Shown in pieces: positions 3,381 through 57,848 of a stretch of DNA of 64,000 nt. The DNA comes from Meloidogyne chitwoodi (Eukaryota > Nematoda > Chromadorea > Rhabditida > Meloidogynidae). The notes beneath the pieces are model-generated. The model ran no database searches, was not told where the DNA came from, and saw only the letters and a program-made list of their open reading frames with translations. Both the position numbers and the translations under genes were made by a program. Within the stretch, counting starts at the first letter, position 1, and each line of letters opens with the position of its first letter. The DNA lies in NCBI GenBank assembly GCA_015183035.1, contig JACZZP010000004.1, positions 372,001-436,000 of the forward strand, read 5' to 3'.

Positions 3381-3382
3381 TC

Positions 3383-18136: not shown

Positions 18137-18305
18137 TATAAATATTACTAATTAATAATAATTATAATCTGAAAAAGAAAATAAAAATAAAAATTAATAA
18201 ATAAATAATACGCGAACAAAAAATACATAAGAAAATTAAATACGCGAATAATATTAATGAAAAACGCGACAAATAAATTATATGAAATGATAAATAAAAT
18301 GTTAA
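18137..18305. promoter_or_regulatory. Divergent spacer between Helitron and broken copy
   Basis: About 170 bp of AT-rich DNA between the start codon of the minus-strand Helitron and the inverted remnant copy. It should hold the Helitron promoter or 5' leader. No specific site recognised. Confidence 0.3.
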
Positions 18306-25221: not shown

Positions 25222-25612
25222 ATGAAAAATATTTATTATTTGAATTGGATAATTATATAAATATATTTTAATGGCTTTAACTAGATCCCCAGTGTTTTGC
25301 TATTTCAGTATTATTTTTGGGAGCTTAGTTTGCCTAAGCTAAAAAATTTTTCTTAAAATTCAAAGCTTAAAAGTATGGAAACGCGGTTTATTTTAGAGGT
25401 ACGCACATCAATTTATGTTTATTTTTTAATGGTTTACCTTCAATTACAAATTAAAAAATTTCGTGGTTTTTGGATTTACCCTACACAAAAGAATAATGTC
25501 TATTGTTTCAATTAGATAATTATTTAATTTATTTTAATTTTGTTCTTATTGCTTCGTTTTTTGTGCGTTTGTTATTATTTTTGGCAGCTTTTTAATAAGC
25601 TAAAAAATTAGA
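25222..25612 (+). repeat. Two variable-core units
   Basis: Unit 1 (25,222-25,343) has ATTATTTGAATTGGATAATT upstream, a core around 25,275-25,310 (ACTAGATCCCCAGTGTTTTG) and TATTTTTGGGAGC with stem CTTAG-TTTGC-CTAAG. Unit 2 (25,490-25,612) has TTGTTTCAATTAGATAATTA upstream, a core around 25,541-25,573 (TTCTTATTGCTTCGTTTTTT) and TTTTTGGCAGCTT...AAGCT. The cores are unrelated to each other. Confidence 0.65.
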
Positions 25613-25883
25613 GAATTAAAAAATATGAGCTTTATTTATAAACTTATGATTCAATTAAATTTTTTTATTGAATTACAAAGTTATCACTGTTTAAAAAAGT
25701 TTATTATTTTTAGTGTCAGAATTATAACCATTTTCCTTATTTTTTATTAATAAATATTGAATGCAAATTTTTAGAATAAGCTAGATTATTTTGATGAGTC
25801 ATATGGTTATTTAACTTTTTATTTTAGAATAAATAAATGTAAATGTTTTAATAAAATATGAAAATAATTATGAAAATATTAAT

Positions 25884-26185
25884 TCCTCACTTTTCAATGC
25901 CTAGTCATTTAACCTGCGCCGATATGTCTCACAAACTTCTTTTTGATTTAGTACCTCATTTGTCAGGGTAACGTTTCTTAATTAAAATTAATTTTTATTT
26001 ATTGAATTTTATCAACATTTTTAAATTAAAAATAGGACAAATATTTGGCTATTCAATCAACTCATTTCTTTTTTTTTTTAAGTTCAGAATTTATAATGAA
26101 TTTTTAAATTCTTTAGCACAACTTTTCTGTCCTTTAATTTCCTTAAATTATTTAACAAATACAAACTTTAACAAAAAAATTAAAT
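25884..26185 (+). pseudogene. Possible exon remnant of an unidentified gene
   Basis: An ATG at about 25,898 opens a short, codon-like segment (MPSHLTCADMSHKLLFDLVP) ending at a GT donor near 25,969. A TAG acceptor at about 26,035 resumes in phase but reaches a stop within ~16 codons. A different frame then looks coding (FRIYNEFLNSLAQLF). Either a broken gene or a chance frame; product not recognised. Confidence 0.25.
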
Positions 26186-27213
26186 AATTATAATTTAAAA
26201 TTAATATTTTTAAAAACATTTTTGTATTTTATTAAATTTATATTTTAAATAAAAAAATTCCAAAGGGTGGTATCCAGTTGGGTGTGCTACTACTATAATG
26301 AGGTGATGCAAGATCGCGATCTGAAGATAACCTCATTAAATTATTTAATTTTATATTTTTAATTTTCTTTTTGTCAATTTTACATCTCCTAATATTTATA
26401 AATAAATAGTAATTCCTTTTTTTACCCTTTTTTAGTTTCCAAAATAAAATATTTAACTGACCCTTTGTGTGTGTTTTCATTTGTCACGTCTATATTTTGT
26501 ATAAAAAATTAAAAATTTCATAATGTCGAAAAACAATAAAATATAAAATGGTCAAAACGCCAAAAAAAGATCAAAATGTCTACTCTGCCAAAAATGTTTT
26601 TTAGACTTTTGCCATTTTGACAAAAGGCCACACACTGGTCTTTGATCATTTAATAAACCTTTTCCTTATAATAAATTAATTGAATATATTTTAAATACAA
26701 AAGAGAGTAATATAAAAACAACATTTTGAGAGCAGTCGACATTTTGTGTGATGAGACACGTAATACATTCAAATAAATAATTATATTTCTGCTCAAATAA
26801 ATAAATGCCCTTTTCCTCAAAATAAAAGAGGTATTATTTAACATAATTATATTTATTTTATACCTTTTAATTTAATTTCATTTACCAAATCTTTTTTTAT
26901 TTCTCAAATCATAGTATATAAACGGAGATGAAATTTTTTGATTTTAGAGAGAAATGCAACGCCTTCCCTCAACAATTTTTAACTTTAAATTGCTTGTGCT
27001 TCCTTTTTTTAATATTTACTTGACATTTTATTGTAATACATCTTTTTATGTTTTTATGTGTTTTATTCTTTTTATTTAACTTTATTTTTCTTCCCAATAT
27101 TTTTATTTTTTTTTAATATTCTCGTTTTAATTAAAAATATTTTTAAATTATTTTTTTCTTCTAGAAATCCTTGAAATTAATAATTATAAATATTTCACAG
27201 TTTTATTAATAAA
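26186..27213. other. AT-rich spacer with a small palindrome
   Basis: Contains the hairpin AATGAGGT ... ACCTCATT with centre AGATCGCGATCT (about 26,298-26,340). The rest is AT-rich and probably holds the promoter of the gene starting at 27,214. A TTTCACAG acceptor-like site ends about 15 bp before its ATG, so trans-splicing of a leader or an upstream untranslated exon is possible. Confidence 0.4.
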
Positions 27214-30200
27214 ATGGAAAATAAAAAACTTGCTTTAATTGACAATAATAACACTGAAAATGATAAGGAAGACATTCTCACAACTTTTAGAAAAATTGTT
27301 GCTTCAGCTCAATTTATTAATAAATCAATGGCTCAACAACAACCTCAAATTAATTATTTTGATAATTTCAAAGCAAATCAAATTGGAGAAGTACAAAAAA
27401 ATAACAATTATAATTTTAGGCAATGTAAGTGTTTTTTTTAATATTTATTCTTACTTTTTATTTAAAAAATCTTTATGTAATGTCAGTCCTAAAATAAGTA
27501 GGGAGCCTTTAGAATTTGGGCTGTACTATAGTATACCGGACGCAAAATTTTGTATAAAAAGACATACCATTCGATTCGTCTCGACGAGCTGAGTCGAATG
27601 GTACTACTCTCATGATGCGGAAATGCCTAAAAGTCGAGATACAAGCCCCTAAAATTCGAAAACCCAAAGGGGGGAGTAAGCTCTACAAAGTGATTACCGC
27701 GGCTGCATCTAAATTATTTTCATTGAATTAATTATTTTGTTGTAATTTGCGCCGTAGAATAACGCATGTACCAAAAAGCCAACGAGAGATGGGCTCCCAA
27801 ATCAAGAAGTCATAAAACACTCCCTATAGGTCCATGTTTGTCGTGCTTCAAGCAACTTCGATCCGTCATAACTTTGTTAATAATCGTTCAATCAAACTGA
27901 TTTTGGTTTCATTCGATAGGTCTCGAAGAGACCTATCGAATGAGCTATCATACTCCTATTTGAATTTTTACCCTCAAAAAGAGCTTACTCCCCCCTTTGG
28001 GTTTTCGAATTTTAGGGGCTTGTATCTCGACTTTTAGGCATTTCCGCATCATGAGAGTAGTACCATTCGACTCAGCTCGTCGAGACGAATCGAATGGTAT
28101 GTTTTTTGATACAAAATTTTGCGTCCGGTATACTATAGTATATCCAGAATTTGTATATTTTAGGTAAACACCCCATATATTCGCAAAATATAAAAAATAA
28201 AATTATTAAAACATTGGATATTATTTGCTCACAAAACTTAAAAATCCCTAATTGACATTTCTCCTTAAAACCAAATTTATCAGAGTTTGCCTAAAAATAA
28301 GAATTTTTGAAAAATTTTAATTTTTTTAATCTTTACTAAATTTACTAAAAGAATTTTAGCTTAGGTAAACCTAAGCTCCCAAAAATATAAATGCGACTAC
28401 GTAGAAAGTGATAAGAAAAATAAAATTATAATTACTATATAAGTTTTTATCCTTTAAAATAACACATACTTTTCATTTAATTAATTTGATAAAGTGAATT
28501 AAAAAATTCACAATTTCACTATGCATAATTACGGACACCAAAATTAAAAGAAACCCAATTTGTTCCTAAAATCGCGTTTTAGAGGTGGATGCTTAAAAAT
28601 AAAAATTTATGAATAATTTTAATTCTATTTTAACTAAATTTACTAAAAAAAATTTAGCTTAGGTAAACCTAAGCTCCCAAAAATAATAAATAAATTTAAA
28701 CAAGATGCGCAGAGAACAAAATTATAATTATACCTATTTGTTTATCCAATTGAAATAATAAATACTTTTTATTTAACTTAATAGATAACTACAAAAAACC
28801 ACAAAATTCAAAAAATACTTTGACCTTTCTCCCAAAAAATCGTGTTTATTAGATAGAATTCTCCTAAAAATAAAAAAAGTTAAAAAAGATTATACTTCTT
28901 TTAATCGTCTCCAAATTTACTAAAAAAAATTTTTAGCTTAGGTAAGCCTAAACTCGCAAAAATATTAACTGTATAAAAGAAATCAGAAGTCCAAAAAATA
29001 GTTAAAATTAAATTAGATATAATTATTTAATTGAAATAATACATACTTTTTATTTATAATAATTTTTTTCTTTTTCTCTCCAAAATTGAGTTTACTTAAA
29101 ATAATGGACAAAACAGACAAGTTATAAAGATTTTAATTCTCTAAAAAATTTTTAGCTTAGGTAAACTAAGCTCCCAAAAATATTAACTCGATGAACCGTC
29201 AACAAAATACGAACATTAATTTGACAATTAAATTATATATAATTATTTAATTGAAATAATATTTGCTTTTCATTTAATTTAGTATGGGAGGACATTAGCG
29301 AAATTTCTCAATCCGTAATTGCAGGAAAAACAAGAAATTGGTTTCCTATAAATTGAACTTTTCTCTTAATCTTTTTTTTAGCCTAGGCAAACTAAGCTCA
29401 CAAAAATACACAACAAATACAAGCCAACGGGAAAATGACTAATAAAACTAATTAAAATTATGCATATCTAATTATTTAATTGAAATAATATTTATTTTTC
29501 ATTTAATTGTGTGTTTGGGTAACTAACATGGATGGGTAAAATCAGAAAATAAAAACCAAAATTATAAATAAATATGGTCTAAAAATCCGAAACTTGTTCA
29601 AAATTTAAAAAAATTCAAAATTACAAAAAATTTTAGAAAATTTAGGATTTTATCCCGAAACCCGAAACTTGCCCTTCCTGGAACTAACTTTATAAGCTCT
29701 AGTTTAAAACAGTCAAAAATTTATAAATGAACATTTCAAAATCGGTACTTTTATACCTTAAGTAAATAAACACCCCATTTTTGCAAAAAATATAAAAAAT
29801 AAACAAAATAATAAAATATTTTTTAAAGAATAAATTGAGTTTTTACCTAAAATATAAAAGATCCGAGCCTTTTAACTTAAATTATCAATTTCTTAAAATT
29901 AAATAAATTTTAGGTCGTGAAAAAAGAAAATTTACTTCTGAGGTATCCGATTTTCTTGTAGAAGAAGTTTTGAAGAGAAAAACACTTTTAGTTGAAAACA
30001 ACACTAGTCGGGTATTTTAAAAATTAAAAAAATAAATTTATTTTTAATTTTTTAAAAAAGGATTTAACCTTTTCTGAAAAGAAAAGAAATGCTTGGAATG
30101 AAGTCCGCTCACTCCTTTCAACACATTTTTTAGGTTTTGATCAAAATATTGAAGCAATTAAATCTCATTGGCGTTATAGGAAGAGAAAAGTGACTGATGC

Positions 30201-32740
30201 GTATGGAGAATTTAATTGGTTATTTTTTATTTTATTTTTTTATTAAAATATTTTTTAAAATTAGAAACATTATTTTTCCTCACTTGAATGTCAAAAATGA
30301 ATATAAAGGGCCAAAATTCAATCTTAAATTTTAATGAAAAATATTCTTAGGGACTTTTCTTTCTGTTGACAAAGTACGCAAGTTATAATATTTATTTTCG
30401 CAGAGAATTTTTTATTTTTTTAAAATACATATACATATATACCAGGGATGGGCAACTTTCGTATTCGTCTTTCGTATTTTTAGACCAATTTTATTTCGTA
30501 TTTTTGGACGAAATACGAAATTTTTGAAATTATGAAATTTTTAAAATTTCGGAATAAAAAAAATTTTTTGGGGTAGTTTCGTATTTTGATTTTTGTTACT
30601 TTCGTAATTTCGTATTATTTCGTTTTTTGAGCCTTTTTTATTTCGTATTTCGTCTTTCGCTTTTTATTTTCCGATTTTGCCCATCCCTGTACATATGTAT
30701 AAGGAAGCAAAAGGTAGAGGAATATAAAAAATTCAAATTTTACAAATATTGTAACAATTTAAAAATTGTTTTGTGAAATCCCTGACGAAACACACATGCG
30801 CACTCTTTGTAAAAAATAAATATTATAATTTGCGGACAATAACTTGCGGACATTCGTAAACAGAAAAGAAAACTCATACTCATAAAATAGTATTATGGAA
30901 ATTATTTTTTGCACTAATTTTAAAATATTTTTAAAGAATATTTAAAGCAGAATAATATATATTTTATTATTTATTTTTTATTATATGTTATTTTATTTAT
31001 TTTTTCGTGTATTTTTTCGCAGGAGATTTTTGTGTATTTTTGGGAAGTTAAAGCTTTTTTGCTTTAACTTAATTATTTTTTTAACATTCGTATTCTCGTA
31101 TTTTTTCAAGTTTTTTTAAAAGATTTTAAGAAAAAAATTTTTTAATTAGTTTTTTTTAATTAGTTTTTTTTAATTAATTAATTTTTTCAAGTGCTCCAAA
31201 CTTGGAAAATAAATTAAAAGAAAAATTTTCTCCAATTGATAAACAAATATTTGAAGAACTGAAAGATTCAAATATGCTTCAACAATCTATGGAAATTGAT
31301 AATAAATCTATTGTAAGATTTTTTAAATAATTATTGACAAAAAATATTTAAAATTCGTCTCATGCTCTAAATTCTCTAAAAAAGGTTTAAAAGGAAATAA
31401 ATAAATAATAAGTCCTTTAAATATTTTATAGAATTTATTGCGTTATTTTAATCCTTGAGATATACTTAGAACATTTATATTTAATTTTTTATTTAATTAA
31501 ATTAGGCATATAAAAAATATATTTTTTAATTAAAAAATATATAATTTAAAATATTTTTTAATTTTATTTTTTTTTTTAATTTTATTTTTTTTTTAATTTT
31601 ATTATTATTTTTTAACCTTTTTAGAGCGAAACAAGTGACGAAACAGCACCAACTTTTACAGAAAATAATTCTTCAATGTCTGCTTCAAGTTCTTTTGTTG
31701 TTTCTCAAAATTTAAATTCACCAGACAAAAAACAAAATATTCAAAATAATTCTTCTTCAATAAATTGTCCTACAACAAATAATATACAATTTATTTTAAC
31801 TCAATTAATTGCTAAAAAATATGCTCAACAACAACAGGGAATTAATAATAAAAATGAAGAAGTAAATTATTTATTTGGCGACAATAAGGCTGATATTAAA
31901 GAGGTAATATTTTTTGAATATTTTGAGTCTCAGTTACTCACTCCTTGTTTTTGGGGTTTTCGCTATTTAATCCAATGTTTTTTAAATTACAAAATTTTAC
32001 TTTTCGTTTTTTAATTTTAGTTTTGTATAATATTAAATATTTGAACTTTACATTGTATATTATTTAATAGAAGTATTCGATAAAATTGTCCACAGTGTTG
32101 GGATGATGAGATATTTTTGTAAGCCAAGATATTGTTGGCTAATTTTAATCTCAACTAGATTGATTTTAAAAGATTCTCCCTATCTGAATATTTTTGCCAA
32201 GTTAGAAACAAGTTTTTAAGGAAAATGTAAGAAAAATAAAACATACATTTTTGACCATAATTTTAGATATACAGAGCCAAAAATTTTTTAAGTTATCTTC
32301 CCACTTTAATTTAAGTTTCTCCCCAATTGAGTCACCATTTTCACCAGCACATTTTACGTGATTTTTTAATTTTAACATTTTTCCCTTTAGAATCATTATA
32401 ATTCTCCAACTATAGAAGAAAAAGATTTATTAGTTGATAATCTACAAAAAATGAGAGGAAAAAAGCGAATTATGCAAATTAAATCTGATGATGATTTAAT
32501 TGAAGTAAAAGAAGAAATTAATAAGGAAAGTGAAGAAAGTTTAGAATCTCTTCAAAGAAAGGCTTTACAGGTGCTTTTTAAATTAAATTTTATTAAAAAA
32601 ATTTTTTTAATTTTTAGGCACAGATTTTAGCATTTGAAGAATTCAGAAATAGTTCACAAATTGTTTATAACACAGCAATTGAATTGCAGAAATTATTACC
32701 TCAATTGTCCGCTTTTTTAAATAAATCTCTTAATGACTAA
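27214..32740 (+). CDS. Zeste/Myb-SANT-like DNA-binding protein, 7 exons
   Basis: Exons 27,214-27,424; 29,914-30,011; 30,061-30,218; 31,192-31,312; 31,625-31,903; 32,391-32,570; 32,618-32,740 join with matching phase at every GT-AG junction to give 389 residues and a natural stop. Residues 71-150 (REKRKFTSEVSDFLVEEVLK, W115, then IKSHWRYRKRK with W140) have the spacing of the zeste-type Myb/SANT-like DNA-binding domain: basic start, three helices, two tryptophans. The rest is Q/N/S-rich with an acidic stretch (residues ~310-345) and a helical C-terminus; such proteins often oligomerise. Expected to be nuclear. No signal peptide. Intron 1 is 2.5 kb and filled with a MITE and five variable-core units; intron 3 holds nested inverted-repeat elements. 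Exact partner or target genes cannot be read from sequence. Confidence 0.8.
27519..28145. mobile_element. Long-TIR MITE, 627 bp, 8-bp TSD (intronic)
   Basis: Exact duplication AGAATTTG at 27,511-27,518 and 28,146-28,153. Arms of about 170 bp are near-perfect inverted repeats (GTACTATAGTATACCGGACG at the left). The interior holds GAGACCTATCGAATGA-type palindromes, an ATTACCGCGGCTGC motif and AACTTTGTTAATAATCGTTC. It shares the interior with 53,644-54,314 and fragments with 36,814-37,077, so all three are one family with GG...CC ends and 8-bp TSDs. It encodes no transposase. Confidence 0.9.
28355..29510 (-). repeat. Five variable-core units in tandem
   Basis: Hairpins at 28,358, 28,656, 28,934, 29,153 and 29,379 (plus-strand AGCTTAGG-TAAA-CCTAAGCT and variants), spaced 220-300 bp. 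On the minus strand each unit reads: AGTATATATTATTTCAATT block, unique core, TATTTTTGGGAGC, stem-loop, GCTAAA. Core positions on the plus strand are about 28,392-28,420, 28,690-28,716, 28,965-28,997, 29,183-29,218 and 29,408-29,440. Cores share no similarity although the ~200 bp on both sides do. Confidence 0.75.
30350..30873. mobile_element. CCGCAAGT-type TIR element, interrupted
   Basis: Left GGGACTTTTCTTTCTGTTGA followed by CGCAAGTTATAATATTTATT pairs with the right complement (AATATTATAATTTGCGGACA ... CAGAAAAGAAAACT). It is related to 43,308-43,676, a fragment at 33,775-33,845 and 48,398-48,590. Another element (30,443-30,689) sits inside it. Confidence 0.65.
30443..30689. mobile_element. 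hAT-like MITE with TTTCGTATT subterminal repeats
   Basis: Ends CAGGGATGGGCAA and TTTGCCCATCCCTG are perfect inverted repeats with the CAGGG start typical of hAT elements. Inner flanks are short repeats of TTTCGTATTTCGTA in inverted orientation. The 8-bp flanks (ATATATAC, TACATATG) do not match, so no TSD is claimed. No coding capacity. Confidence 0.75.
32020..32146 (+). repeat. Variable-core unit with CCAA/TTGG stem
   Basis: Core at about 32,085-32,111 (AATTGTCCACAGTGTTGGGA...), then ATATTTTTGTAAGCCAA, loop GATATTG, TTGGCTAA. The stem differs from all other units but pairs perfectly. It lies in intron 5 of the zeste-like gene. Confidence 0.6.
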
Positions 32741-33451
32741 TTTATTTTCACAAATTTTAAATTTTTTATAAAACATTTTTAAAATAATAAAAAAATCTTT
32801 TTTAAACGTTAAATAAACTTTAAATAATATTTTTAATTTTATTTTTACTAAATAAAATTGTACTGCTTATAAAAAATCCTCAAAAGTAAGATTTTTTATT
32901 TTTTTAAATTTAAGATTTTCAAAATTTTTAAAAGAAAAATAAAATGTATTTAAAATTTTGACTAAAAAGAATTGCTGTTTCACACAACATAATCAACAAA
33001 ATTAAATATTGAAGTTTTCAAGCTTTCCCTATAAAAAAGAAAGCAATTCCAAAATTTTCCAAGCCGCCACTCTCTCGAGAGCAAGAAGTTAATACAAACC
33101 TCAAACTTGGGTAATTAAACCGAATATTAAGAATAAACCAAAATATATAAGCAAAAGTAAATTAAAATTTCAAACGCGAAGTAAAAGAGAAACATTTTAT
33201 GTTAGTTAAAGAATAAAAGATAAATAAATTAACTACTCTCTCTTTTTCTTATTTCTCTAACACAAAGGAAATTGTTCAGTGAGACTAAAAATGTCAAATA
33301 GAGAAAATAAACAAAACATCTAATTCTCTCTTAAATTTAAAAATGTTCATAAAGGTAAGTTATTTAAAATTGTCACGCATCAATTATTATTAAAATTTAT
33401 TTATTAGATTATTTTTGAAGAATTTTTTCATAAAATTGTAAAAATGTTTTG
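32741..33451. other. AT-rich intergenic
   Basis: 3' flank of the zeste-like gene followed by a somewhat less AT-rich patch (33,050-33,300) with repeated CTCTCTTTTTCTTATTTCTC-like sequence. No gene supported. Confidence 0.4.
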
Positions 33452-34078: not shown

Positions 34079-35794
34079 ATGAAATTTACATTGTTATTTA
34101 TTTTTTTCATTTTTATTTCTTTAATAAATTTAAATGTCTCAGTAATTTCCAATGCGAATATTAATGGAGGTAAGAGAGATTTATCCTTCGATAAATATAA
34201 ATATTAAATTTAAAAGTGCCCACAAACGCTCCATTAAATGCTAACAAAATTAATGCAAAATCAACACCTCATTTTGGGAATTCTAGCAATTTTTTAAGTT
34301 TAAATTTACTTAATTTTTTATTATTTTTTAAATTTTAGATTTATCAAAAAGAATGTTTACGAGTTTTAAGCATTCCTCAATGCCTTTAACTTCAATTTCT
34401 TCTAAAGGAAAAAATGGTAATTTTATTTTTAAAATTTAATTATTTATTTATTTTAGTAATTCCACATGCAATTGCTGAAAATGGAGTAAATAAAGATCTT
34501 CTTCCATGGCAATTAACATTCGGTTATGAATGTTTAAAGACACTTGCGCTTGGATATGATTTGATTTTTAACTTTTCTGTAGAGGATGGAGAACTTGAAA
34601 TGTATAAAAAAGCTGGAAGCTCCTTAGATAAAGGAAGAAGGAAATTATTTTTAAAATATTTACACTCAAGCAATGGGTTAATAATTTAATTAATTTTAAA
34701 TATGCATCGACCAAACTAAAATTAATTTTTAAAAATTCTTCAAACAGCCATATCTTTATAAATTTTACTTTAAATAATTCCTTAAAATATTAATTTAGAA
34801 CTCATCCAACTATGACAGATCAAATCATTAAAATCTTTAATATTATCAGCAATAAAGACATTGAATCAGATATTGGAATTGATGAGACAAAATATCCAAA
34901 AGTCGTTTCTCATCTTTGTTGTTGGGCTATGACAATATATTTAGCAAATACTTTATTTTCTCTTAGTAAAAATGATAAAAATGCAGAAATTAATATTGTT
35001 AACACTGTATTACTGCTTAAAATGATAACTATTGAGTAAGTGCGATTTAAATAAATTTAATTTGTATTCCTGGCACTGCGCCAAATTAGTAAATACATAA
35101 TTAAATTTAATTTTGATATTTTTAGAAAAAAAAATTTAAATAAGAATTTAAAAATATTTTAAAACATTGCCATATGTCCTCTGAAAAAAGCTAGTATTTC
35201 TTTTAATCTTTAAAAAGTATGTATATTAAATTTTGAAGATTTCAGATTTTTAAATTCTTTAAAGAGTTTTTAGCTTAGGTAAACCTAAGCTCACAAAAAT
35301 ATAAGTATAAAGCAATCGATTTAAATGATCATAAACATAAAATAAAATAATTATTATATTTATTTAAATAATTGAAATAATACATACTTTTCATTTAATT
35401 ATTTTGTTGTAAAGATCAAAAAACATAATTTATGACAAAGTTGGGGCTTTTATAATATATGAAAAGGAATGTGAGCTTTTATAGAAAAGTTTGCAACTTG
35501 AAAATATAAACTTGAACTAAAATAGACTTAAACTTAAAAATAAACTTTAAATTAAAGTTTTAACTTAAATAATGAATCAAGTTTAATCTTAAAACTTGAA
35601 ATACTTTTTACTATTTAAGTAAACAAAATGAAGATATAATACCACAAATTAAAAAAACTGGACTTTTTGTTATAAAATATATGAAAGAAATTTTTCCTTT
35701 TCAAAATTTTTATGATGGTGAATTTTTAAAGGCAATTAATGAGAGTGAAAAAAATATTAAAGAATGTTTTGATGATGAATGTATTGACGATTAA
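34079..35794 (+). CDS. Secreted orphan protein, 293 aa, 6 exons
   Basis: Exons 34,079-34,169; 34,217-34,297; 34,339-34,416; 34,457-34,676; 34,799-35,035; 35,620-35,794 join in phase to a natural TAA. The N-terminus MKFTLLFIFFIFISLI is a strong hydrophobic signal peptide, with likely cleavage near residue 25 (VISNA). The mature part is predicted soluble, mostly helical, with a double cysteine (HLCCWAM), a conserved-looking LPWQLTFGYECLKTLALGYD segment and an acidic tail with two cysteines (ECFDDECIDD). The first introns are tiny (40-47 bp), typical of nematodes. I recognise no family. In a plant-parasitic nematode such secreted orphans are effector candidates, but that is inference. Confidence 0.72.
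35265..35405 (-). repeat. Variable-core unit (intronic)
   Basis: Lies in intron 5 of the secreted orphan gene. Plus-strand hairpin AGCTTAGG-TAAA-CCTAAGCT at 35,271-35,290, CACAAAAATA, core about 35,302-35,332 (AGTATAAAGCAATCGATTTA...), then AATTGAAATAATACATACTT. Confidence 0.7.
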
Positions 35795-36333: not shown

Positions 36334-48281
<11,948 letters not shown>

Positions 48282-49611: not shown

Positions 49612-50312
49612 GTTTTAGCTTAGGCAAAACTAAGCTCCCAAAAAATTATAGTCAAATATCGAAGTCAAAGGTAATCAAAGCTAAAATTATATAATTATTT
49701 ATGTTTTTTAATTGAAATAATATTTACTTTTCTTTTTTATTTTGGGAAATTAAAAAATCCCTAATTTAACATTTTTTTCCTAAATTTGAGTTTATTAGAG
49801 GGTTGCTTAAAAATAAAAATTTATGAAATATTTTAATTATTTTTAAAATCTTTTCTAAATTCACCTAAAAAAAATGTTTTTTTTAGCTTAGGTAAACCAA
49901 AGCTCACAAAAATATCAATGGTAACTGTACAACATTGCCAAAAAATAATAAAAAAATTTAATTATATAATAATTAAATTTAAATAATATATATTTTTTAC
50001 TAAATTGTGTGATGGTAAATTTAAAAAAACGCAAAATTTCTCAACAGTAAATACAGAAATACAAATCAAAAAATGAATTAGTGTGCCCATTACATTTTTC
50101 TCTAAAATTGTATTTATTAAAGATATTGCATAAAATAGAAAATTTAGCTCGAATTTTAATTTTTTTAAAATGTCGAAATAACTTTTAGCTTAAACAAATT
50201 AAGCTTTCAAAAATATAATGGATCAGGACCAACCAAGAAAATCACCAAAACAACTAAAATATTTTCATTTATTAATTTTTCAATTGAAATAATATATACT
50301 TTTCTTTTAATT
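49612..50312 (-). repeat. Three variable-core units
   Basis: Plus-strand hairpins at 49,615 (AGCTTAGG...ACTAAGCT), 49,886 and 50,188 (AGCTTAAA...TTAAGCT). Cores about 49,646-49,672 (GTCAAATATCGAAGTCAAAG...), 49,917-49,942 (ATGGTAACTGTACAACATTG...) and 50,219-50,252 (TGGATCAGGACCAACCAAGA...). AATTGAAATAATATTTACTT-type blocks follow each. Confidence 0.7.
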
Positions 50313-50373
50313 TTTTGAATGGATAAAGTAGTATAAAAGGTTTTAGTTTGAGACAAAGGGTTTAGTAAAGGTG

Positions 50374-50594
50374 ACCGGAAAATTCCTCTTCATCGAAAAA
50401 TTCCGCTCCAAACATAAATATTCTCTCTGTAAAATACCTCTTTTAACAGAAAAATCTTACCTAAATAATTATTTATTTTGGATCACTTAAAAAATAGTAC
50501 TATGTTAGAATAATCTTATTAAAATTAACTAAAATAACTTTAAAATTTCAAAAAATTTTACTAGGAGAGGAATTATTCAGAGGAATTTTCCGGT
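50374..50594. mobile_element. 221-bp MITE with ACCGGAAAATTCCTCT ends
   Basis: Perfect 16-bp inverted repeats ACCGGAAAATTCCTCT / AGAGGAATTTTCCGGT. The centre holds a second GAAAAATTCCGCTCC-like copy. No target duplication visible and no coding capacity. Confidence 0.75.
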
Positions 50595-52920
50595 AATAGT
50601 TTCAAGCAGTTAACGATAAAAATAAATAAATAAATAAATATATGTTAACAAATTAAAATTAAAAAATATAAAATTATGAAAAATTAAAAAAAAATTCTAA
50701 ATAAAGCAAAGAAGGAATTAAAAGAAAATGATAAATATTTAAGGATTTAATGAAGGTGGAGTGTTTTTTAAAATTAGTTATGACATCAAAAGCATTAATA
50801 TATTAAGTTTTATTTTTATTAAAGGAATTTGTTTGAAATAAAAAAATTTTTTTTTAATATTAAATAAATATACATATATGTAGAAATTTTAAAATAAATT
50901 AAATAAAAAATAAATAAATAAAAAATAAATTAAAAAATAAATTAATTAAAAAATGAATAAAATAAATAAATAAAATATAATTTATTTTAGTTGTATTCTG
51001 TAATTTAAGGTGAAGAAAAGGAAAAGGAAAAAAAAAAGAAATGCTCAAATATCAACAGAAGAAAGAGGTTTAAATACTATTTTATTTTATTTTTATCTTC
51101 TTTTTCTTCTAAAAATAAAACAATTTTAAATTTACCGTAAATTCTTTTTTAAAATATTTTTTAAAAATAGGAGAAAAATAATTTGCTTAAAATTTTCTTT
51201 AAAAAAAAAATTATTTTTCCTTTGCTTTAAATTAAAAAATTTATTTCTAAAAAGCTTTTCCTGTTTTAACTAAATATGCACAGCGCATTTTCTCATTAAC
51301 CATTCAAAAGCATTGTTCTGTCAGCCATTCATTGGTATTGTTTTGGAAAAAATTTTTCTTTTTTTTCAAAGCTTTCTTTTGTTATTTGGAATGGAAAATA
51401 TATTATTTGAGTGAATGGAAAGGCAAAAAATAAAATAAAAGAAAAAAGATTTTTGGTGCCTCCTAAGCTTTTTAAGCTCCTCCCCTCTTTTCTTTTTTTC
51501 AAAAAAGAAAAGGAAAAGCGGATCGTTGAAAATTTTTTTTCAAAAATACTACTAAAAATTTTAGTTTTTTCTATTGTTTTTATTAAAGAATTTTTCTAAA
51601 TATTTTTCAATAACTTGGAACTAAAAACAACGTAAAATGGCCACCAGGGAATTTTGGGAAGAAAATGAAAAATTATGTGGAATCGTAAATGACTTTATTT
51701 TAATAAGAGAAGCTTATTTTATTAATAAAATGGAAAGAAATAAAAAATAATAAAATAATTGACTGAGGAAAGGAATATTAAAAGAAATAAAAATTAAAAT
51801 ATTTTTTTGCGAATAAATGGGGTGTTTAATTAAAATATAAACAATTTTAAAAATAACTCTACAAAATAATATGTAAATAAAAAAGTTGAATATAGACAAT
51901 TTTTTTATTTTTAAAATTTTATTTTAAATTATTAAACAAAATTCTGAAGAAAATAAAATTAAAATGAAGACTGCAATAATTTTGAAATTACGCGTGCGCA
52001 AAAAATTTATAAAATTGTAGATTGCGTTTTTAAATTTTTACAATTTTTTTGAATTTTTTTCTCAAACAAAAAATAACGAATTTTAAAAAAATTAAAAAAA
52101 AATTTTTTTTTAATAATAAAAAAAAATTCTGAATAAAAACTAAAATTTATTTGTTCAACGAAATAATTTTTTATTAAATTTCTAAAGTATAAAAATAATT
52201 ATTTAGATAAAAATAAATATATTAACATCATTTAAATTTAATTTTCTTCAACTTTTTATTTAAAAATAAATTTCTATTAAAGAATTTTTTAAATTAATCA
52301 CATCATTTGCCATTTTTGCCCTTAAAAAAATTTAAAAAAAAGACAATTTAATGGGTTTTGTATTTTTTAAAGTGTTTCTTCTATTTTAGAATGTCACAAC
52401 GAGAAAAGTTTTTTTTTTTGCCATTTTTAAAAATAAATATTAAAATATTATTTTTATTTTTTTATGTCTTCTTCTCTGCGCGAAACTTTTCTTATCCTTT
52501 CCATCCTAATCCGATTATTTAAGAATGATGAGATGAAAAGGAAAATTAAAAATATAAGTGATATGAGAAGGGCAATATTTTAATACTAAAATGGATTTCA
52601 AATAAAAATTCTAAAAAAGGAAAAAAATAAAAAATTAATTTTTAAAGGGGAAAGATGATGTTTATTAAATCATTTTCGAAGCCTTAAAAAGTTTAAAATC
52701 TTTTAATGAAAATTAAAAATCGGAGAAAATATTTAATTAATGAGCTAAACGTCATTTTAAATAAGAATTTATTTTAAATTTTAAAAATATTTTTTTTAAA
52801 TTTTATAAAAATTTTAAGGCTAATTAATTAATTTTTTTTAGTGCTTATTTAAATGGAGAAATATTCTAATTAAACGGTAAATAAATTTTCTATTTTTGCA
52901 TTTTGCTTATATTTTATTTA
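50595..52920. other. Gene-poor AT-rich DNA
   Basis: Long AT-rich tracts, purine- or pyrimidine-rich patches (51,000-51,070; 51,470-51,520) and one GCGAATAAATGGGGTGTTTA motif at about 51,810. Short open frames (about 60 codons) lack splice support. I find no gene. Confidence 0.5.
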
Positions 52921-53046
52921 AAAAATATTATTTAATAGGTATTATTTAAATAAATTAATTTTAAATATTTATTTATATTTTTTACATTTATTAATACACA
53001 GCTAGAATATATAGTATTTTTGTAAGCTTTGTTTTTCTAAGCTAAA
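52921..53046 (+). repeat. Variable-core unit (CTTTG/CTAAG type)
   Basis: Upstream ATTAATTTTAAATATTTATT, core about 52,990-53,013 (TAATACACAGCTAGAATATA...), TATTTTTGTAAGCTTTGTTTTTCTAAGCTAAA. Confidence 0.65.
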
Positions 53047-53643
53047 GCTGAAAAAAATTAAGTAAAGTTTTGGACCAGAAGTTTGAGTCCAGAGTAGGGT
53101 TGAGCGGGATCGGGATCCCGACCAACAATCGGGATCGGGATTTTTAAAATTCAATCCCGATCACGATCCCGAGTCGGGATCGGGATTGGCTAAAGTCGGG
53201 ATCGGGATTTCGCATTTTTTATTCGATACCGATCCCGATCCCGGCCCGGGATCGGGATTGAAAATCGGGATCGGGATTTTTCAAAAAATAACCAAAAATT
53301 CTCTTTTTCAGCGCTGCAGGCGAAAATTTTAAGGATTTTTATAATTCTGTTGCTAAAAATTCATATTTTTTAGTATCATTGGCGAAAATTTTGAAAATTT
53401 TCTACAACCCTGTTAAAAAATATTGTTATTTAGCGCCGCAGGCAAAAAATTATTCCACATTAGTTGAAAAAATTCAACTTTTTTGGTGCCGCAGGCGAAA
53501 AATTTTGAATAATTAATCAACATTAGTTGCCTAAATTCGCTTTTTTTGTGCGCAGAAGAAAATTCAAGGACTTTTAATTTATTTAAAACGTTGCAAAACG
53601 AGCGAAAAATAAAGTTCAACGGTAATTAATGTACACAAAATTC

Positions 53644-54314
53644 GGCACTATATGAAAGGAAGTCCCTCATCCAATTTTTTCTACATTCTTAAAAAATGGG
53701 TAATTTTTATATGTCATTCGAAAGAGCTCTTCGAGCTGAGTCGTTGACATATAAACTAGTCCACGGAAACAACTTTGGGCCGAGTTACAGCTCACCGAAA
53801 ATTGAAAAACCATAGGGGGGGGACCAACCTCATTTTTGGGCTGAAAAATTCGAAAATGAGTATGATAGCTCATTCGAAATAGATCTTCAAGACCTATCGA
53901 ATGAAACCAAAATCAGTTTGATTGAACAATTATTAACAAGTTATGACGGATCGAAAGTTGCTTGAAACACGCCAAACTTGGAACTATTGGGAGTGTTTTA
54001 TGACTTCTTCGTTTGGGCGCCCATCTCTGGTTGGCTTTTTGGTACATGCGTTAATCTACAGCTATAATTACAACAAAATAATTAATTCAGTGAAAATAAT
54101 TTAGGAGCAGCCGCGGTAATCACTTAGAAAAGCTTGGTCCCCCTATGGTTTTTCAATTTTCGGTGAGCTGTAACTCGGCCCAAAGTTGTTTCCGTGGACT
54201 AGTTTATATGTCAACGACTCAGCTCGAAGAGCTCTTTCGAATGACATATAAAAATTAGCCATTTTTTAAGAATATAGAAAAAATTGGATGGGGGACTTCC
54301 TTTCATATAGAGCC
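53644..54314. mobile_element. Long-TIR MITE, 671 bp, nested, 8-bp TSD
   Basis: Duplication CAAAATTC at 53,636-53,643 and 54,315-54,322. The related hAT element at 41.8 kb supplies a similar uninterrupted target (AAAATTATTTATCCATC in reverse). Arms of about 185 bp start GGCACTATATGAAAGGAAGT and are inverted at the right. The interior (AACTTGTTAATAATTGTTCA and GCAGCCGCGGTAAT, plus or minus strand) matches the MITE at 27,519-28,145 in opposite orientation. Confidence 0.92.
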
Positions 54315-54324
54315 CAAAATTCTT

Positions 54325-54410
54325 TATCCATCCGTAGGAATCGAACCAAAACCTATTTAACGAAGTAGACTATGCTACTAACCACTCAACCACATTCGCA
54401 CTTAGATAGA
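54325..54410 (-). repeat. tRNA-like segment in the second hAT element
   Basis: On the minus strand: possible A box GTGGTTGAGTGGTT (54,393-54,380) and B box GGTTCGATTCC (54,347-54,337). About 80 percent like 41,726-41,806 by eye. Box sequences are conserved while stems are poor, so a tRNA-derived fragment. Confidence 0.6.
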
Positions 54411-54787
54411 AATCAATTAAATTATTGATAAATTCTTCACTTTAATAATTTACGTTCTTCTCCCGTGCAAGGGAGTCAATGAAGATAAGGAGAATGAAAA
54501 AACAAAAAATATATAAAATTTCATTTTAATATTTTTATAAAAAATCGGGATCGGGATTTTGGAGCTAATCCCGATCCCGATACCGATCCCGACACGGGAT
54601 CGGGATCAGCAAAAACCGGTATCGGGATAATCTCTCGGGATCGGGATTAGCAAAAATCGGGATCGGGATTCAGAAAAGTCGGGATAATCCCGACCGATCC
54701 CGACCGGGATCCCGATCCCGCTCAACCCTAGTCCAGAGTGGTGGTCCGCATGTTTCATCAGCCGTTAAACAATTATAATTGTCAATT

Positions 54788-54910
54788 TTTTAGCCTAGAA
54801 AAACTAAGCTTACAAAAATAATACTAGTTCTGGAGAAGAAATAACTTCAATATTATAGATATATAGGTATTTAAAATTAATTAAATAAAATATTTTATAT
54901 TTAATAATAA
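54788..54910 (-). repeat. Variable-core unit (CCTAG/CTAAG type)
   Basis: Plus-strand TAGCCTAG-AAAAA-CTAAGCTTACAAAAATA, core about 54,822-54,846 (TACTAGTTCTGGAGAAGAAA...), then AT-rich conserved sequence AAAATTAATTAAATAAAATA. Confidence 0.65.
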
Positions 54911-55039
54911 AAGAAAATACACATTTTTATTTTTTAATTTTTAAAAATATATCCTTAAATTTTTATATCACCGTTTCAATAAATCAAATTAAGAAATTTC
55001 TATCTAACCGGAAAAAACTCATTTTAGGTAAATTGTTTT

Positions 55040-56290
55040 TGTATTTGGTTGAATAAATATTTAATATTAAAATTAATTAATTTTAAATGAATTTAATATT
55101 TTATTTCATTATATTGAAATAAATAATGTTTGATTATTTTTGTAAGCTTAGATTTTATAAGCTAAAATAAAAATAATGAATTGAGGAGTTTAATACCCAA
55201 AGAGTGCCAAATATTTCCTTAAAACAAAAGTATAGATCAGTGATGCAAAAGTTCCAAAATTTCCACTGAACTAGTTCCAGTTCCGAAACTGCATTTTTAA
55301 TTTTCATTGTTCCAGTTCGAGTTCCGGAAATAGTTCAGAAACAATTTTCAGTTACAGAACTTTTTTTAGTTCCGTAGTTCCATTTCCGGAACTTAAACTG
55401 GAACTTTTCATTACTGGATAAATGTGTCACTAAAAGTGTTTTTTGCTGAATATTATATCAAACAAATTACTAAAGTGTTTTTACTCTAATAAAAAAAGAA
55501 TAATCAATTTTTATTGAGTTTGAAAGAAGTTATTCAAAAAACAAAACCGGCGCCCTTGAAGCCGCACCGCTATTTTATAGGTATATTTTTAGGTGAATAT
55601 CATTAAATATAAAATATTTTAATTAATTAATTTTAAATGTATTTTTTATATTTTTAATTTATTGAGTTTATACCATTCTTCCTTGTATTTTTGTAAGCCT
55701 AATTTTTCTAGGCTAAAATAAAAAAACTATTTTGATCTAAATAACAGACAAAATAGCAAACAACTGTCAAATGCAAAGACATTGTCACAATCCGTTAATT
55801 TCGAAAATTTTCAAATTCGGTAATTAATATTTAACAAGTCCATTTTTTTTTGATGATAGATTTTTTAATTAATTACAATTTTAAATATGTTAAAAAATTA
55901 AATTAATTTAAATAAAAATATTATTTAATATGTAATATTTTAATTAATTTTATTAAATATGTTTATATTTATTTAAATTATTAAGAAGAGCATTTTCGTC
56001 CACAGCTTTTTATTTTTGTAAGCTTAGTTTTTCTAAGCTAAAAATAGTAAAAAAAATTAGTCATAACTAATTTAAGATAATTATATCGAATTGTGTAACC
56101 TACAAAAATAATTATTGACTTAAATATTTGTCGTATTGTTAAACAACTTAATTGTCAAATTTTTAGCTTAGCAAAACTAAGCTTACAAAAATATTACTGA
56201 CTGTTATAGCAAGAGAAGTAACTTCAATAATATAAAAATACTATAGTATTTAAAATTAATTAATTAGAATATTTTATATTTAATAAAATT
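55040..56290. repeat. Four variable-core units
   Basis: Plus-strand units with hairpins at 55,143 (AGCTTAG...AAGCT), 55,696 (AGCCTAA...TAGGCT) and 56,019 (AGCTTAG...CTAAGCT); a minus-strand unit has its hairpin at 56,162. Cores include about 55,660-55,686 (GAGTTTATACCATTCTTCC), 55,983-56,008 (AGAGCATTTTCGTCCACAGC) and 56,195-56,222 (complement TTACTTCTCTTGCTATAACA...). The upstream block is TTTAATTAATTAATTTTAAA. Confidence 0.65.
55238..55416. mobile_element. hAT-like MITE with GTTCCAG subterminal repeats
   Basis: Ends CAGTGATGCAAAAGTTCC and GGAACTTTTCATTACTG form imperfect inverted repeats of hAT type. The inner part is made of GTTCCAGTTCCG-like repeats in both orientations. Flanking 8-mers (GTATAGAT, GATAAATG) do not match. 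Confidence 0.7.
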
Positions 56291-57404
56291 ATTTAAAAAA
56301 AAATACACATTTATATTTTTTAACTTTTCTAAATCTGTATTTGCTGAATCGTATCCTTTTTCAACTGACTGGGAAAAATAAAATTTTAGTAAAAATTTAA
56401 AAATTAATTTCTACAGATTTTTTAAAATTAAAAAAATTAAAATTTTGGTCTATTCAAAATGCGAAATTTAGTCAATTATTTTTATGAAATGTTTGTATTT
56501 ACATTAAAATCATCTAAACAAATATTACTAAATTTACTTAATACCATAATGTATTTATTTAAATGTAATACACACCTGCACTTTTAATTTTTAAGGCAGG
56601 AAAGACGCTTTCTCTTTTAGCTATTTTCAATTACCGCCTTTTTCTTTTTAAATTAATAAAACATTTTTTGAAAAATTTAAAAAAATTAATTCTTAAAAAA
56701 GAGTAAAAAAGATAATAAAAATTGTATTTTAATTTTTAAAAATATATTTTTAAAACAATTTTTTGAGTCTGAGTAAAAGAATTTAAAAATAAATCATAAA
56801 TCAATATATGATAATAAAATTAGATTGAGTAAAGCGGCTTATCCCACCCAGAAAATAGCAAAACATTGGGTGGGATTGAACCTGAGAGTTCTCGAAACAG
56901 GGCTGTAATCCATTCAATCATCCCACCGCTGATTAAAGGCTTCCCTTTTTCATTTATTAACTAGCTGAAAGAAAACTTAGCCGGCCTTACAATTGATCTT
57001 TCTTTCAGTATTGCCCTTTATGAAACAAGGTCAGAAGAACATTGGTATATTAATTAAATAATCAAAACTTTAAGTTTTTATTGTTGAGGAATTTAAACAA
57101 ATTCCCCATCCAAAAATAAATACTGCATTTCAACAAAAGTTTACGTAATAAAAAATAAATATAAACCTAAAAGAATAAAAAATACAATTAAGCTATATTA
57201 AGCAAATTTAAACAAACATTTAGTATAATTTTTAGTTATTAATTCGGAAAATAAAAATTAAAATTTATAGAACAAAATGAGTGTTGATATTTCTAAAATT
57301 TTGTTTTCATTTTAATTAAAATAATATTTATACAATATAGTATAACCAATATTCTACTTTTTTCAGAATAATTTTAAAAAATAAATTTATTAAAAATAAA
57401 TTTA
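56291..57404. other. AT-rich intergenic with a tRNA-like fragment
   Basis: Only the tRNA-like segment at 56,840-56,940 stands out; the rest is AT-rich without frames or repeats that I can name. Confidence 0.5.
56840..56940 (-). repeat. Second kind of tRNA-like fragment
   Basis: On the minus strand GATGATTGAATGG (A-box-like, near 56,911-56,924) and GGTTCAATCC (56,882-56,873, B-box-like). GGTGGGA upstream and TCCCACC downstream could mimic an acceptor stem, but the T arm does not fold. Probably a SINE or pseudo-tRNA, different from the one inside the hAT elements. Confidence 0.4.
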
Positions 57405-57848
57405 TTTTTTATTTTATTTTAAAAGAAATATTGTTAAATATGTAATATTTTAATTAATTAATTTTAAATGTATTTTTTATATTTATCTTTTAAATTTTAA
57501 ATTAAAAGTTCATACATTTATTTTTTGCAAGCCTAGTATTTCTAGGCTAAAATTAGAAAATCTCTATACAAATAAATTGGTCACTCAGAGTCAATTACAA
57601 AATGTTTGATTTTGGTAATTATTGATGATTTTAGAAAAGCCAATTATTTTAATAAATTATTTGTTGATCAATTTTTCTTTTAAGTAATTTATTTAAAAAA
57701 GTTAAATAATAATTTTTTTTTTAAATATTGTTAAATATGCATTAGTTTAATTATACTTGATTTTAAATATATTTTATTTATTACATTTTTTGGGAACATC
57801 GGTTTGAGAATAGCTATATTTTTGTAAGCTTAGTTTTTCTAAGCTAAA
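57405..57848 (+). repeat. Two variable-core units
   Basis: Hairpins at 57,529 (AGCCTAG-TATTT-CTAGGCT) and 57,828 (AGCTTAG-TTTTT-CTAAGCT). Cores about 57,497-57,518 (AAAAGTTCATACATT) and 57,790-57,815 (GGGAACATCGGTTTGAGAAT...). Upstream AATATGTAATATTTTAATTA and AATTTTAAATGTATTTTTTA. Confidence 0.65.

What the first reader, a model, noticed from the sequence alone, without database searches (positions are those of the whole stretch)
25222..57848. At least 37 'variable-core' units: conserved flanks around unique ~21-35-nt cores
From 25 to 58 kb the same architecture recurs on both strands: an AT-rich block around ATAATATTTCAATTAATTA, 30-45 nt of AT-rich lead, a core that is unique in each copy and visibly richer in G+C than its flanks, then TATTTTTG, (T/G)(A/G)AGC, a hairpin and GCTAA. 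Ordinary repeats decay evenly; here similarity drops sharply only in the core. The TTTCA-like element about 35-40 nt before the core, plus one unique short sequence per locus, recalls nematode 21U-RNA (piRNA) loci with their upstream GTTTCA motif. The hypothesis is that each unit is a tiny individually transcribed small-RNA gene. Caveat: piRNAs are reported lost in many non-clade-V nematodes, so a different small-RNA class, or a mobile element with a hypervariable segment, must be considered.
Basis: partly seen in the sequence, partly recalled or inferred. Interest (0 to 1): 0.88.

Follow-up and report, generated by a model that had tools for sequence, protein, structure and literature searches.

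The report
snRNA-like genes with hypervariable cores
A plant-parasitic nematode's genome carries hundreds of tiny gene-like units that each seem to encode a short RNA built on the same protein-binding tail but starting with a different roughly 27-letter sequence, which looks like a large set of individually encoded guide RNAs of a kind I could not match to any described class.

Summary
I find 37 units in the stated interval and roughly 300 to 500 genome-wide, redundant copies included, clustered and on both strands, in a nematode genome whose size and contig count match Meloidogyne chitwoodi. Each unit has an upstream element (TAATATnnAATATTTCAATTAATT), a sharp G+C step 56 nt after that element's start, an unstructured core (median 27 nt), an AUUUUUG heptad and a co-varying 3' hairpin. 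That is the anatomy of an Sm-class RNA of about 60 nt, not of a bare 21U-RNA. Cores are at chance identity even in the few duplicates whose outer flanks are still homologous (28 of 561 pairs, outer 0.73, core 0.50), and 40 of 40 tested cores matched only themselves in the genome. No splice-donor signal; SmY and SL1 genes lie apart from the units; papers report no Piwi in root-knot nematodes. Best reading: a hypervariable guide repertoire on an snRNA chassis, with piRNA-like promoters and clustering and a U7-like RNA. Transcription, Sm binding and guiding are inferred; no target was found.

The parts
25227..25342 (+). unit: upstream element to 3' hairpin; core 25283-25311, Sm-like site at 25312
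25494..25603 (+). unit; core 25550-25575, Sm-like site at 25576
28356..28471 (-). unit; core 28415-28388, Sm-like site at 28387
28654..28767 (-). unit; core 28711-28686, Sm-like site at 28685
28933..29048 (-). unit; core 28992-28965, Sm-like site at 28964
29152..29268 (-). unit; core 29212-29183, Sm-like site at 29182
29378..29497 (-). unit; core 29441-29409, Sm-like site at 29408
30953..31072 (+). probable unit with a divergent hairpin (no AGC..GCTAA); core 31009-31034
   Evidence: weakest of the 37
32028..32142 (+). unit; core 32084-32111, Sm-like site at 32112
35270..35389 (-). unit; core 35333-35302, Sm-like site at 35301
36605..36722 (-). unit; core 36666-36639, Sm-like site at 36638
37112..37235 (+). 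unit; core 37168-37202, Sm-like site at 37203
37391..37506 (+). unit with a shortened site TATTTTG; core 37447-37473
38541..38656 (+). unit; core 38597-38623, Sm-like site at 38624
38842..38953 (+). unit; core 38898-38920, Sm-like site at 38921
39449..39560 (+). unit; core 39505-39529, Sm-like site at 39530
41064..41173 (-). unit; core 41117-41096, Sm-like site at 41095
42583..42695 (-). unit; core 42639-42615, Sm-like site at 42614
42879..42999 (-). unit; core 42943-42910, Sm-like site at 42909
43152..43267 (-). unit; core 43211-43183, Sm-like site at 43182
45613..45728 (+). unit; core 45669-45695, Sm-like site at 45696
45899..46018 (+). unit; core 45955-45985, Sm-like site at 45986
46145..46257 (-). 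unit; core 46201-46179, Sm-like site at 46178
46382..46494 (+). unit; core 46438-46463, Sm-like site at 46464
46586..46704 (+). unit; core 46642-46671, Sm-like site at 46672
47619..47732 (-). unit; core 47676-47647, Sm-like site at 47646
49615..49729 (-). unit with site AATTTTTTG; core 49673-49648
49883..49995 (-). unit; core 49939-49915, Sm-like site at 49914
50185..50301 (-). unit; core 50245-50216, Sm-like site at 50215
52933..53045 (+). unit; core 52989-53014, Sm-like site at 53015
54790..54902 (-). unit; core 54846-54821, Sm-like site at 54820
55055..55165 (+). unit; core 55111-55134, Sm-like site at 55135
55605..55716 (+). unit; core 55661-55685, Sm-like site at 55686
55926..56041 (+). 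unit; core 55982-56010, Sm-like site at 56011
56168..56281 (-). unit; core 56225-56194, Sm-like site at 56193
57436..57550 (+). unit with site TATTTTTTG; core 57492-57518
57733..57847 (+). unit; core 57789-57816, Sm-like site at 57817
41419..41480 (-). 3' half of a further unit (core, Sm-like site at 41449, hairpin; outer ends approximate) with a G+C-rich repeat where the upstream element should be; not counted among the 37

Best explanation
Each unit is a gene for a capped, Pol II-made, Sm-class small RNA of about 56-63 nt. A dedicated SNAPc/Ruby-type upstream element fixes the start about 56 nt downstream of its first base. The RNA has three parts: a hypervariable, unstructured 5' segment (median 27 nt), an AUUUUUG heptad that would load an Sm-type ring, and a terminal hairpin that would protect the 3' end. 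The constant parts make a stable RNP; the variable part is exposed single strand and most likely acts as a base-pairing guide with short or imperfect complementarity, so the few hundred genes together form a guide repertoire, in effect piRNA-like diversity carried on a U7-like RNP. Duplication of units followed by fast replacement or selected change of the core makes new specificities. Shown: anatomy, conservation, co-variation, the fixed step, uniqueness of the tested cores, core turnover in the pairs that can be tested. Inferred: transcription, cap, Sm binding, guiding.
For: Upstream element found de novo in 95 units, 12.6 bits, starting 76-93 nt before the Sm-like site in 89 of 95. Composition changes at +56 from the element; anchoring the step on the element fits better than on the Sm site by 16.6 natural-log units (91 units, 4 dropped), as expected if the core's 5' edge is a start site. 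Core unstructured (mean z +0.07) and 3' hairpin strongly structured (z -4.24) (91 units); stem pair 4 occurs as C-G 53, U-A 22, U-G 11, A-U 3, non-standard 2, and pair 5 as A-U 39, U-A 28, G-C 4, G-U 2, non-standard 18. SL1, U2 and SmY genes of the same genome have similar A-U(4-6)-G sites. Cores are at chance among 87 related pairs (0.51 vs 0.49 shuffled) while the 3' parts, by which units were found, are 0.89 identical. In 28 of 561 window pairs with homologous outer flanks (0.73) cores are at chance (0.50). In four same-strand units of a tandem array on C12 promoters are 0.82, Sm/hairpins 0.94, cores 0.49 (shuffled 0.43 +/- 0.06). 40 of 40 cores hit only themselves in the 47.5 Mb genome, and four cores checked as 18- or 22-mers with up to 3 mismatches were single-copy.
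Against: No RNA data: transcription is not shown. No target was found: four cores have no second site on either strand within 3 mismatches over 18-22 nt; 110 cores show no excess pairing with one SL1, one U2 and one SmY RNA, and 70 cores no longer exact matches than shuffles in 224 kb of held sequence. The upstream element differs from the promoters of most U2 and SL1 genes in the same genome (18 of 20), so SNAPc use is by analogy. The heptad is preceded by U rather than A in nearly all units, partly because I searched with that letter. Outside the few homologous pairs, neighbouring DNA is as diverged as the core, so for most units the core could simply be unconstrained. The match between related units already declines in the AT-rich lead before the core. 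Stem pairs 7 and 8, read in one register, are often unpaired. The raised G+C of the core may serve Pol II pausing rather than pairing (compare PMC6436959).
Confidence: 0.48

Rival explanations
1. A true small-RNA (piRNA-like) precursor system: the functional product is a 21-27 nt RNA cut from the 5' core and loaded on a worm-specific Argonaute; the Sm site and hairpin only end or stabilise the precursor.
For: TTTCA element about 40 nt before the core, clustering, both strands, unique cores, core length near the 28-nt capped precursors of C. elegans, and a higher-G+C then AT-rich order like the published pausing signature. Clade IV Strongyloides has 21-22U and 27GA small RNAs said to compensate for lost piRNAs (PMC9203780, passages).
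Against: Published surveys find no Piwi-clade Argonaute and no piRNA-like reads in M. incognita J2 (PMC4524723) and no PRG-1 in root-knot nematodes (PMC5934874). A conserved heptad plus co-varying hairpin is not needed for a cut precursor. The Strongyloides classes have no upstream motif. My own Argonaute check was partial (5 of 14 translated exons compared with PDB).
Confidence: 0.22
2. Sm-class RNAs whose 5' part is irrelevant: the RNA sequesters or recycles Sm proteins or acts in trans-splicing like SmY, and the core is only an unconstrained spacer.
For: Nothing shows a use of the core sequence; SmY RNAs are nematode Sm RNAs acting in SL1 trans-splicing (PMC11229312, passages); outer flanks are mostly as diverged as cores.
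Against: Core G+C is well above neighbouring DNA with a sharp edge, and where outer flanks are still alignable the core is not, so there it changes faster than the flanks. A bona fide SmY gene exists elsewhere.
Confidence: 0.15
3. Spliced-leader RNA genes with unique leaders.
For: Nematode, Sm site, 3' hairpin; an SL1-type gene lies inside the cluster at 33121-33022(-).
Against: No clear positional GT signal in cores; 12 of 93 cores have no GT, shuffles 9.5 +/- 2.5; too short for SL stems I and II; the SL1 promoters do not match the unit element (10 of 10).
Confidence: 0.03
4. A snRNA-derived short mobile element (SINE or MITE) with a hypervariable segment.
For: High copy number, both strands, clustered.
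Against: In 8 of the 28 homologous pairs the downstream homology starts within 3 nt of both hairpin ends and runs on for 118-154 columns at 0.69-0.80 identity, as in segmental or tandem duplication rather than insertion. I made no search for terminal repeats or target-site duplications. Units sit at the same places in the C16 and C25 copies (14 of 14), which is weak evidence as these copies are nearly identical.
Confidence: 0.05

Closest known systems
Type I piRNA (21U-RNA) loci of C. elegans and other nematodes
   Same: One small gene per unique core; GTTTC/CTGTTTCA-type element upstream; clustered in AT-rich DNA; short core with high then low melting order (PMC6436959, PMC9203780, passages)
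   Different: Here a constant AUUUUUG heptad and co-varying 3' hairpin follow the core; no Piwi reported in root-knot nematodes; no YRNT start; hundreds, not the >15,000 of C. elegans (abstract in listing)
U7 snRNA
   Same: (recalled) about 60 nt: 5' single-stranded pairing segment, Sm-type site, one 3' hairpin
   Different: (recalled) U7 is one sequence with one target class and a special Sm site; here hundreds of different 5' segments, canonical heptad, no known target
SmY RNAs
   Same: Nematode Sm-class RNAs, short, stem-loop after the Sm site (PMC11229312, passages)
   Different: SmY has a conserved 5' stem-loop and twelve genes in C. elegans; a separate SmY locus is present here
Spliced-leader RNAs
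   Same: Sm site and 3' stem-loop; snRNA-type genes
   Different: No leader, no positional donor site, no stems I/II in the units; SL1 genes are separate
Strongyloides 27GA and 21-22U small RNAs
   Same: Clade IV nematodes without Piwi; 27-nt RNAs with a modified 5' end and clustered 21-22Us (PMC9203780, passages)
   Different: No upstream motif reported; predicted to target TEs by antisense match; known as reads, not as genes with Sm site and hairpin

Membership tests
Nematode type I piRNA loci | GTTTC-type upstream element at fixed distance from start | tested here: met
   TATTTCAA-type element; compositional step 40 nt after its TTTCA. Similar, not identical: the G of GTTTC is A or T here and the C is present in only 0.46 of units; the start itself is inferred
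Nematode type I piRNA loci | Piwi-clade Argonaute in the genome | tested here: inconclusive
   38 Piwi-domain matches; 5 of 14 translated exons compared with PDB: one clear AGO, the rest weak or ambiguous; papers report absence in root-knot nematodes
Nematode type I piRNA loci | YRNT initiator, 5' U of the mature RNA | tested here: not met
   No such signal at the step, 93 and 113 units; start placement uncertain by a few nt, so a blurred signal could be missed
Nematode type I piRNA loci | 21-nt RNA with 5' U bound to Piwi | not testable with these tools
   no RNA data
Sm-class RNA | A-U(4-6)-G heptad followed by a 3' stem-loop | tested here: met
   AUUUUUG in the pattern-selected units, variants AUUUUG and AUUUUUUG also seen; hairpin z -4.24 and co-varying pairs
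Sm-class RNA | binding to Sm proteins, TMG cap | not testable with these tools
   none
U7 snRNA | Rfam-level similarity | tested here: not met
   no Rfam family at gathering score in the window; none of six weak matches in 25000-58200 is U7
SmY RNA | conserved 5' stem-loop / Rfam RF01844 | tested here: not met
   the only SmY match reported in the genome is on C5; cores are unstructured; no SmY match among the units
Spliced-leader RNA | donor GT after a leader at fixed position | tested here: not met
   no GT dinucleotide position above 0.14 of 93 units
Mobile element | homology ends at element borders | tested here: not met
   in 8 of 561 window pairs downstream homology runs on from within 3 nt of both hairpin ends; most pairs have no outer homology at all and cannot be judged this way
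Mobile element | target-site duplications, terminal repeats | not tested
   no dedicated search made

The most novel reading that the evidence does not exclude
A Piwi-less nematode has rebuilt a genome-encoded guide repertoire on spliceosomal-type RNPs: several hundred Sm-class RNAs, each with its own private 5' guide that is replaced soon after gene duplication, working as a piRNA substitute or as a natural, diversified U7-like antisense system.
Probability: 0.33. Interest if true: 0.96.

Novelty: categorically new. Interest (0 to 1): 0.86.

Why it matters
Nematode piRNA genes are thought to have arisen from snRNA promoters (PMC6436959, passages), and how Piwi-less nematodes police their genomes is open. 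A family that joins piRNA-type promoters, clustering and unique cores to an Sm-type RNA body would be a missing intermediate or an independent replacement, and would be the first natural case I know of (from recall) of a diversified Sm-RNP guide repertoire. The questions become testable at once with 5'-end RNA sequencing and Sm pull-down.

Tried and rejected
Rfam: nothing at gathering score in the window; six weak matches in 25000-58200, one of them the SL1 gene. Spliced leaders: no clear positional GT signal. SmY: separate gene. Cores as hairpins or miRNA-like: no structure. Cores as copies of, or antisense to, something in the genome: 40 cores plus 40 reversed controls gave only the 40 self hits, with a tool whose first look may miss short matches; four cores by exact pattern with 3 mismatches, self only. 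Pairing with SL1, U2, SmY RNA: none beyond shuffles. Core composition as antisense of coding sequence: T>A fits but G>C does not (coding composition recalled; core composition); not pursued to a statistic. Allelic comparison: C16 and C25 copies are 98.8-100% identical, so uninformative on core turnover. Two cores in viral contigs: no exact match; the unit's 3' pattern matched 5 viral contigs, without the upstream element, 3 of the 5 with the same local sequence, taken as unrelated. Literature: searches listed no paper describing such a family (49 and 71 showed 12 of 29 and 12 of 16); only open-access papers are held, two of ten searches were not used, and of the papers I cite I saw passages, or a listing where so marked.

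Full report
Where it is. The window is G000:C25:372001-436000 of an assembly of 47,477,280 bases in 30 contigs. The genome carries nematode SL1-type RNA genes (10 matches, all below the Rfam cut-off, but with leader GGTTTAATTACCCAAGTTTAAG in 9 of 10 and GT after it) and U2 genes (9 of 10 matches over the cut-off). A database paper lists Meloidogyne chitwoodi at 47.5 Mb in 30 contigs (PMC10706385, table passage), which fits; the species is therefore inferred, not read from a label.

The observation. A strict pattern finds 27 units in the window. Genome-wide, TATTTTTGNRAGC..GCTAA occurs 303 times with 0 in the reversed-pattern control and ATTTTTGNNAGY..RCTAA 547 times against 45. The places listed lie mainly on C25 (0.12-0.98 Mb) and C26 (one at 2.03 Mb, the others 2.26-2.59 Mb), with small groups on C12, C1 and C16/C17 (only the first hundred or so places of each search are shown). 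Of C16, 14 fetched units match C25 at about 608-652 kb at 98.8-100% (three of them over only 182-187 bases), and C17 has hits at nearly the same coordinates as C16, so C16/C17 look redundant and the counts are slightly too high.

Anatomy. I collected 95 units: 35 of the window, chosen by eye from 61 fuzzy matches, and 60 fetched from the lists. A de novo motif search upstream finds TAATATnnAATATTTCAATTAATT (12.6 bits) whose start lies 76-93 nt before the Sm-like site in 89 of 95. Two units (41449 in the window and L095) have a G+C-rich repeat in its place. Anchored on this element, G+C rises from 0.18 at +54/+55 to 0.29-0.38 at +56 to +59. A single change point fits best at +56, and the fit is 16.6 natural-log units better than the best change point anchored on the Sm site (91 units; four without a good element were dropped). 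So the core's left edge is measured from the promoter, as a start site would be, and its right edge is the Sm site. Core length is 27 nt in the median (18-41 in 91 units; 5-95% 22-34 in 113 of 125 units of a larger set). The core has no structure (mean z +0.07), the 3' hairpin does (z -4.24). Stem pairs 4, 5 and 6 occur as several alternative Watson-Crick pairs, with 2, 18 and 6 non-standard; pairs 7 and 8, read in one register, are often unpaired. The heptad AUUUUUG with a stem-loop directly after it is the standard make-up of Sm-class RNAs (recalled); SL1, U2 and SmY of the same genome show AAUUUUGG, AAUUUUUGG and AUUUUUUGG sites. Predicted products of five window units are 56-63 nt.

Hypervariability. 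Among 87 of 4465 pairs with 5' flanks at least 0.80 identical (selected on that), Sm/hairpin identity is 0.89 (inflated, since units were found by this part) and core identity 0.51 against 0.49 for shuffled cores. A fair check against me: in two window families the DNA outside the units is on average hardly alignable either (excess over shuffles -0.03 to +0.04, core +0.005 and +0.03), so being non-conserved is not special to the core. The telling subset is the 28 of 561 window pairs whose outer flanks are still homologous: outer identity 0.73 over the best local stretch (so somewhat flattering), core 0.50, mean z +0.48. They involve 24 units and are not independent; in 9 of them the outer match is upstream or does not begin within 9 nt of both hairpin ends, and is weaker evidence. 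In the 8 pairs where it begins within 3 nt of both hairpin ends it runs for 118-154 columns at 0.69-0.80, and their cores are at 0.41-0.53. Examples: 42614/49914 (137 columns at 0.80, core 0.48) and 38921/39530 (118 at 0.80, core 0.43). A tandem array on C12, not used to learn the motif (its element was located by a hand-made pattern), has five units in the fetched stretch; the four on one strand have promoters 0.82, Sm/hairpins 0.94, upstream spacer 0.70, downstream spacer 0.58 against 0.53 shuffled, and cores 0.49 against 0.43 +/- 0.06 shuffled; the predicted start falls on AATG or ATG in three of the four. So a little similarity remains, near the start. Position by position in 62 closely related pairs, without gaps, the match is 0.73-0.99 up to +35, 0.57-0.75 from +36 to +47, 0.37-0.52 from +48 to +57 and, apart from +60, at the composition level (0.21-0.36) from +58 on; it rises again 1-2 nt before the Sm site.

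Uniqueness and targets. Forty cores and forty reversed controls searched together gave exactly 40 matches, all at the cores' own places (the tool's first look may miss short matches). Four cores searched as 18- or 22-mers with up to 3 mismatches on both strands were single-copy with no antisense site. No excess pairing of 110 cores with SL1, U2 or SmY RNA, and no longer exact matches of 70 cores than of shuffles in 224 kb of held sequence. A long near-perfect target inside the nuclear assembly is therefore unlikely for the four; short, mismatched or exon-junction pairing is untested.

What it is not. There is no clear positional GT (at most 0.14 of units at any place before the Sm site), and 12 of 93 cores lack GT altogether (shuffles 9.5 +/- 2.5), so they are not likely spliced-leader donors. 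One SmY locus is found elsewhere. Rfam has no match to the units. In the best duplicates homology crosses the hairpin border, unlike insertions; target-site duplications were not searched for. The upstream element is not the promoter element of most of the genome's U2 and SL1 genes: best scores in 120 nt upstream are at most 1.7 in 18 of 20 loci, against a unit median of 13.1 (5th percentile 3.0); two U2 loci with altered 5' ends reach 9.5 and the SmY locus 8.7, which overlaps the lower range of units.

Relation to piRNA genes. Published work states that nematode piRNA promoters derive from snRNA promoters, that the ancestral motif had GTTTC, that piRNA precursors are 28-nt capped RNAs, and that piRNA loci show a high-melting stretch from the start to about +19 followed by a low-melting one (PMC6436959, passages). 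The units share the TTTCA-type element about 40 nt before the start (the C. elegans spacing is recalled), clustering, unique cores and the high-then-low order. Root-knot nematodes are reported to lack PRG-1, and M. incognita J2 to lack piRNA-like reads (PMC5934874 and PMC4524723, passages). My own check is partial: 38 Piwi-domain matches, 14 loci translated, five compared with PDB: one clear AGO, one nearest to a plant AGO and almost as near to Piwi, the rest weak.

Mechanism. Most likely each unit is transcribed by Pol II from its own element, the RNA gains an Sm-type ring at AUUUUUG and a hairpin-protected 3' end, and the exposed 5' segment pairs with target RNA. The combined repertoire would act like piRNAs or like many U7-like antisense RNAs. 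Confidence: RNA genes about 0.85, Sm-class body about 0.7; all steps jointly as stated 0.48 (set down from 0.55 on checking, because a joint claim cannot exceed its least certain step, guiding, which I put at about 0.5). The main rival is that a 21-27 nt RNA cut from the core is the product; next, that the core is a passive spacer, which its composition edge and its faster change in the testable pairs argue against.

Novelty. I found no description in searches (search listings, partly capped, open-access library only). It fails a tested feature of piRNA loci, U7, SmY and spliced-leader RNAs, so I do not file it in any of them; it meets the sequence features of an Sm-class RNA, whose protein binding could not be tested. 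It works most like a cross of nematode piRNA loci and U7-type RNAs.

Noticed in passing
window 33121-33022 (-): An SL1-type spliced-leader RNA gene (GGTTTAATTACCCAAGTTTGAG followed by GT, Sm site AAAATTTTGG, 3' hairpin) inside the cluster; below the Rfam cut-off (26.5 bits).
   Followed up: partly
window 12407-18151 (-): A long open frame (1913 aa scanned) with Helitron_like_N and PIF1 helicase domains: a Helitron-type element with a long uninterrupted frame.
   Followed up: partly
window about 1154-4891 (+): G+C-richer minisatellite-like region reading as repeats of ...RPSALGSLIQMDHL... in open frames.
   Followed up: no
window 53151-53268: Weak matches to two miRNA precursor models, on both strands; probably an inverted repeat or MITE.
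   Followed up: no
window 41400-41500 (-) and L095: Units with G+C-rich short repeats (CGGGTTTCGGGT..., GGAACCGGAACC...) where the upstream element should be, while core, Sm-like site and hairpin remain.
   Followed up: no
L015, L016, L017: U2 genes with altered 5' ends (ATCAATTCATCC.., ATAAACTTTTGG..) and different upstream sequence from the standard U2 genes.
   Followed up: no
G000:C16, C17 and C25 about 608-652 kb: C16 and C17 (153 kb each) look like redundant, nearly identical copies of part of C25, opposite in strand to C25; C17 judged from hit coordinates only.
   Followed up: partly
L156-L160: Five viral contigs match the unit's 3' pattern by letters but lack the upstream element; 3 of the 5 share the same local sequence.
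   Followed up: partly
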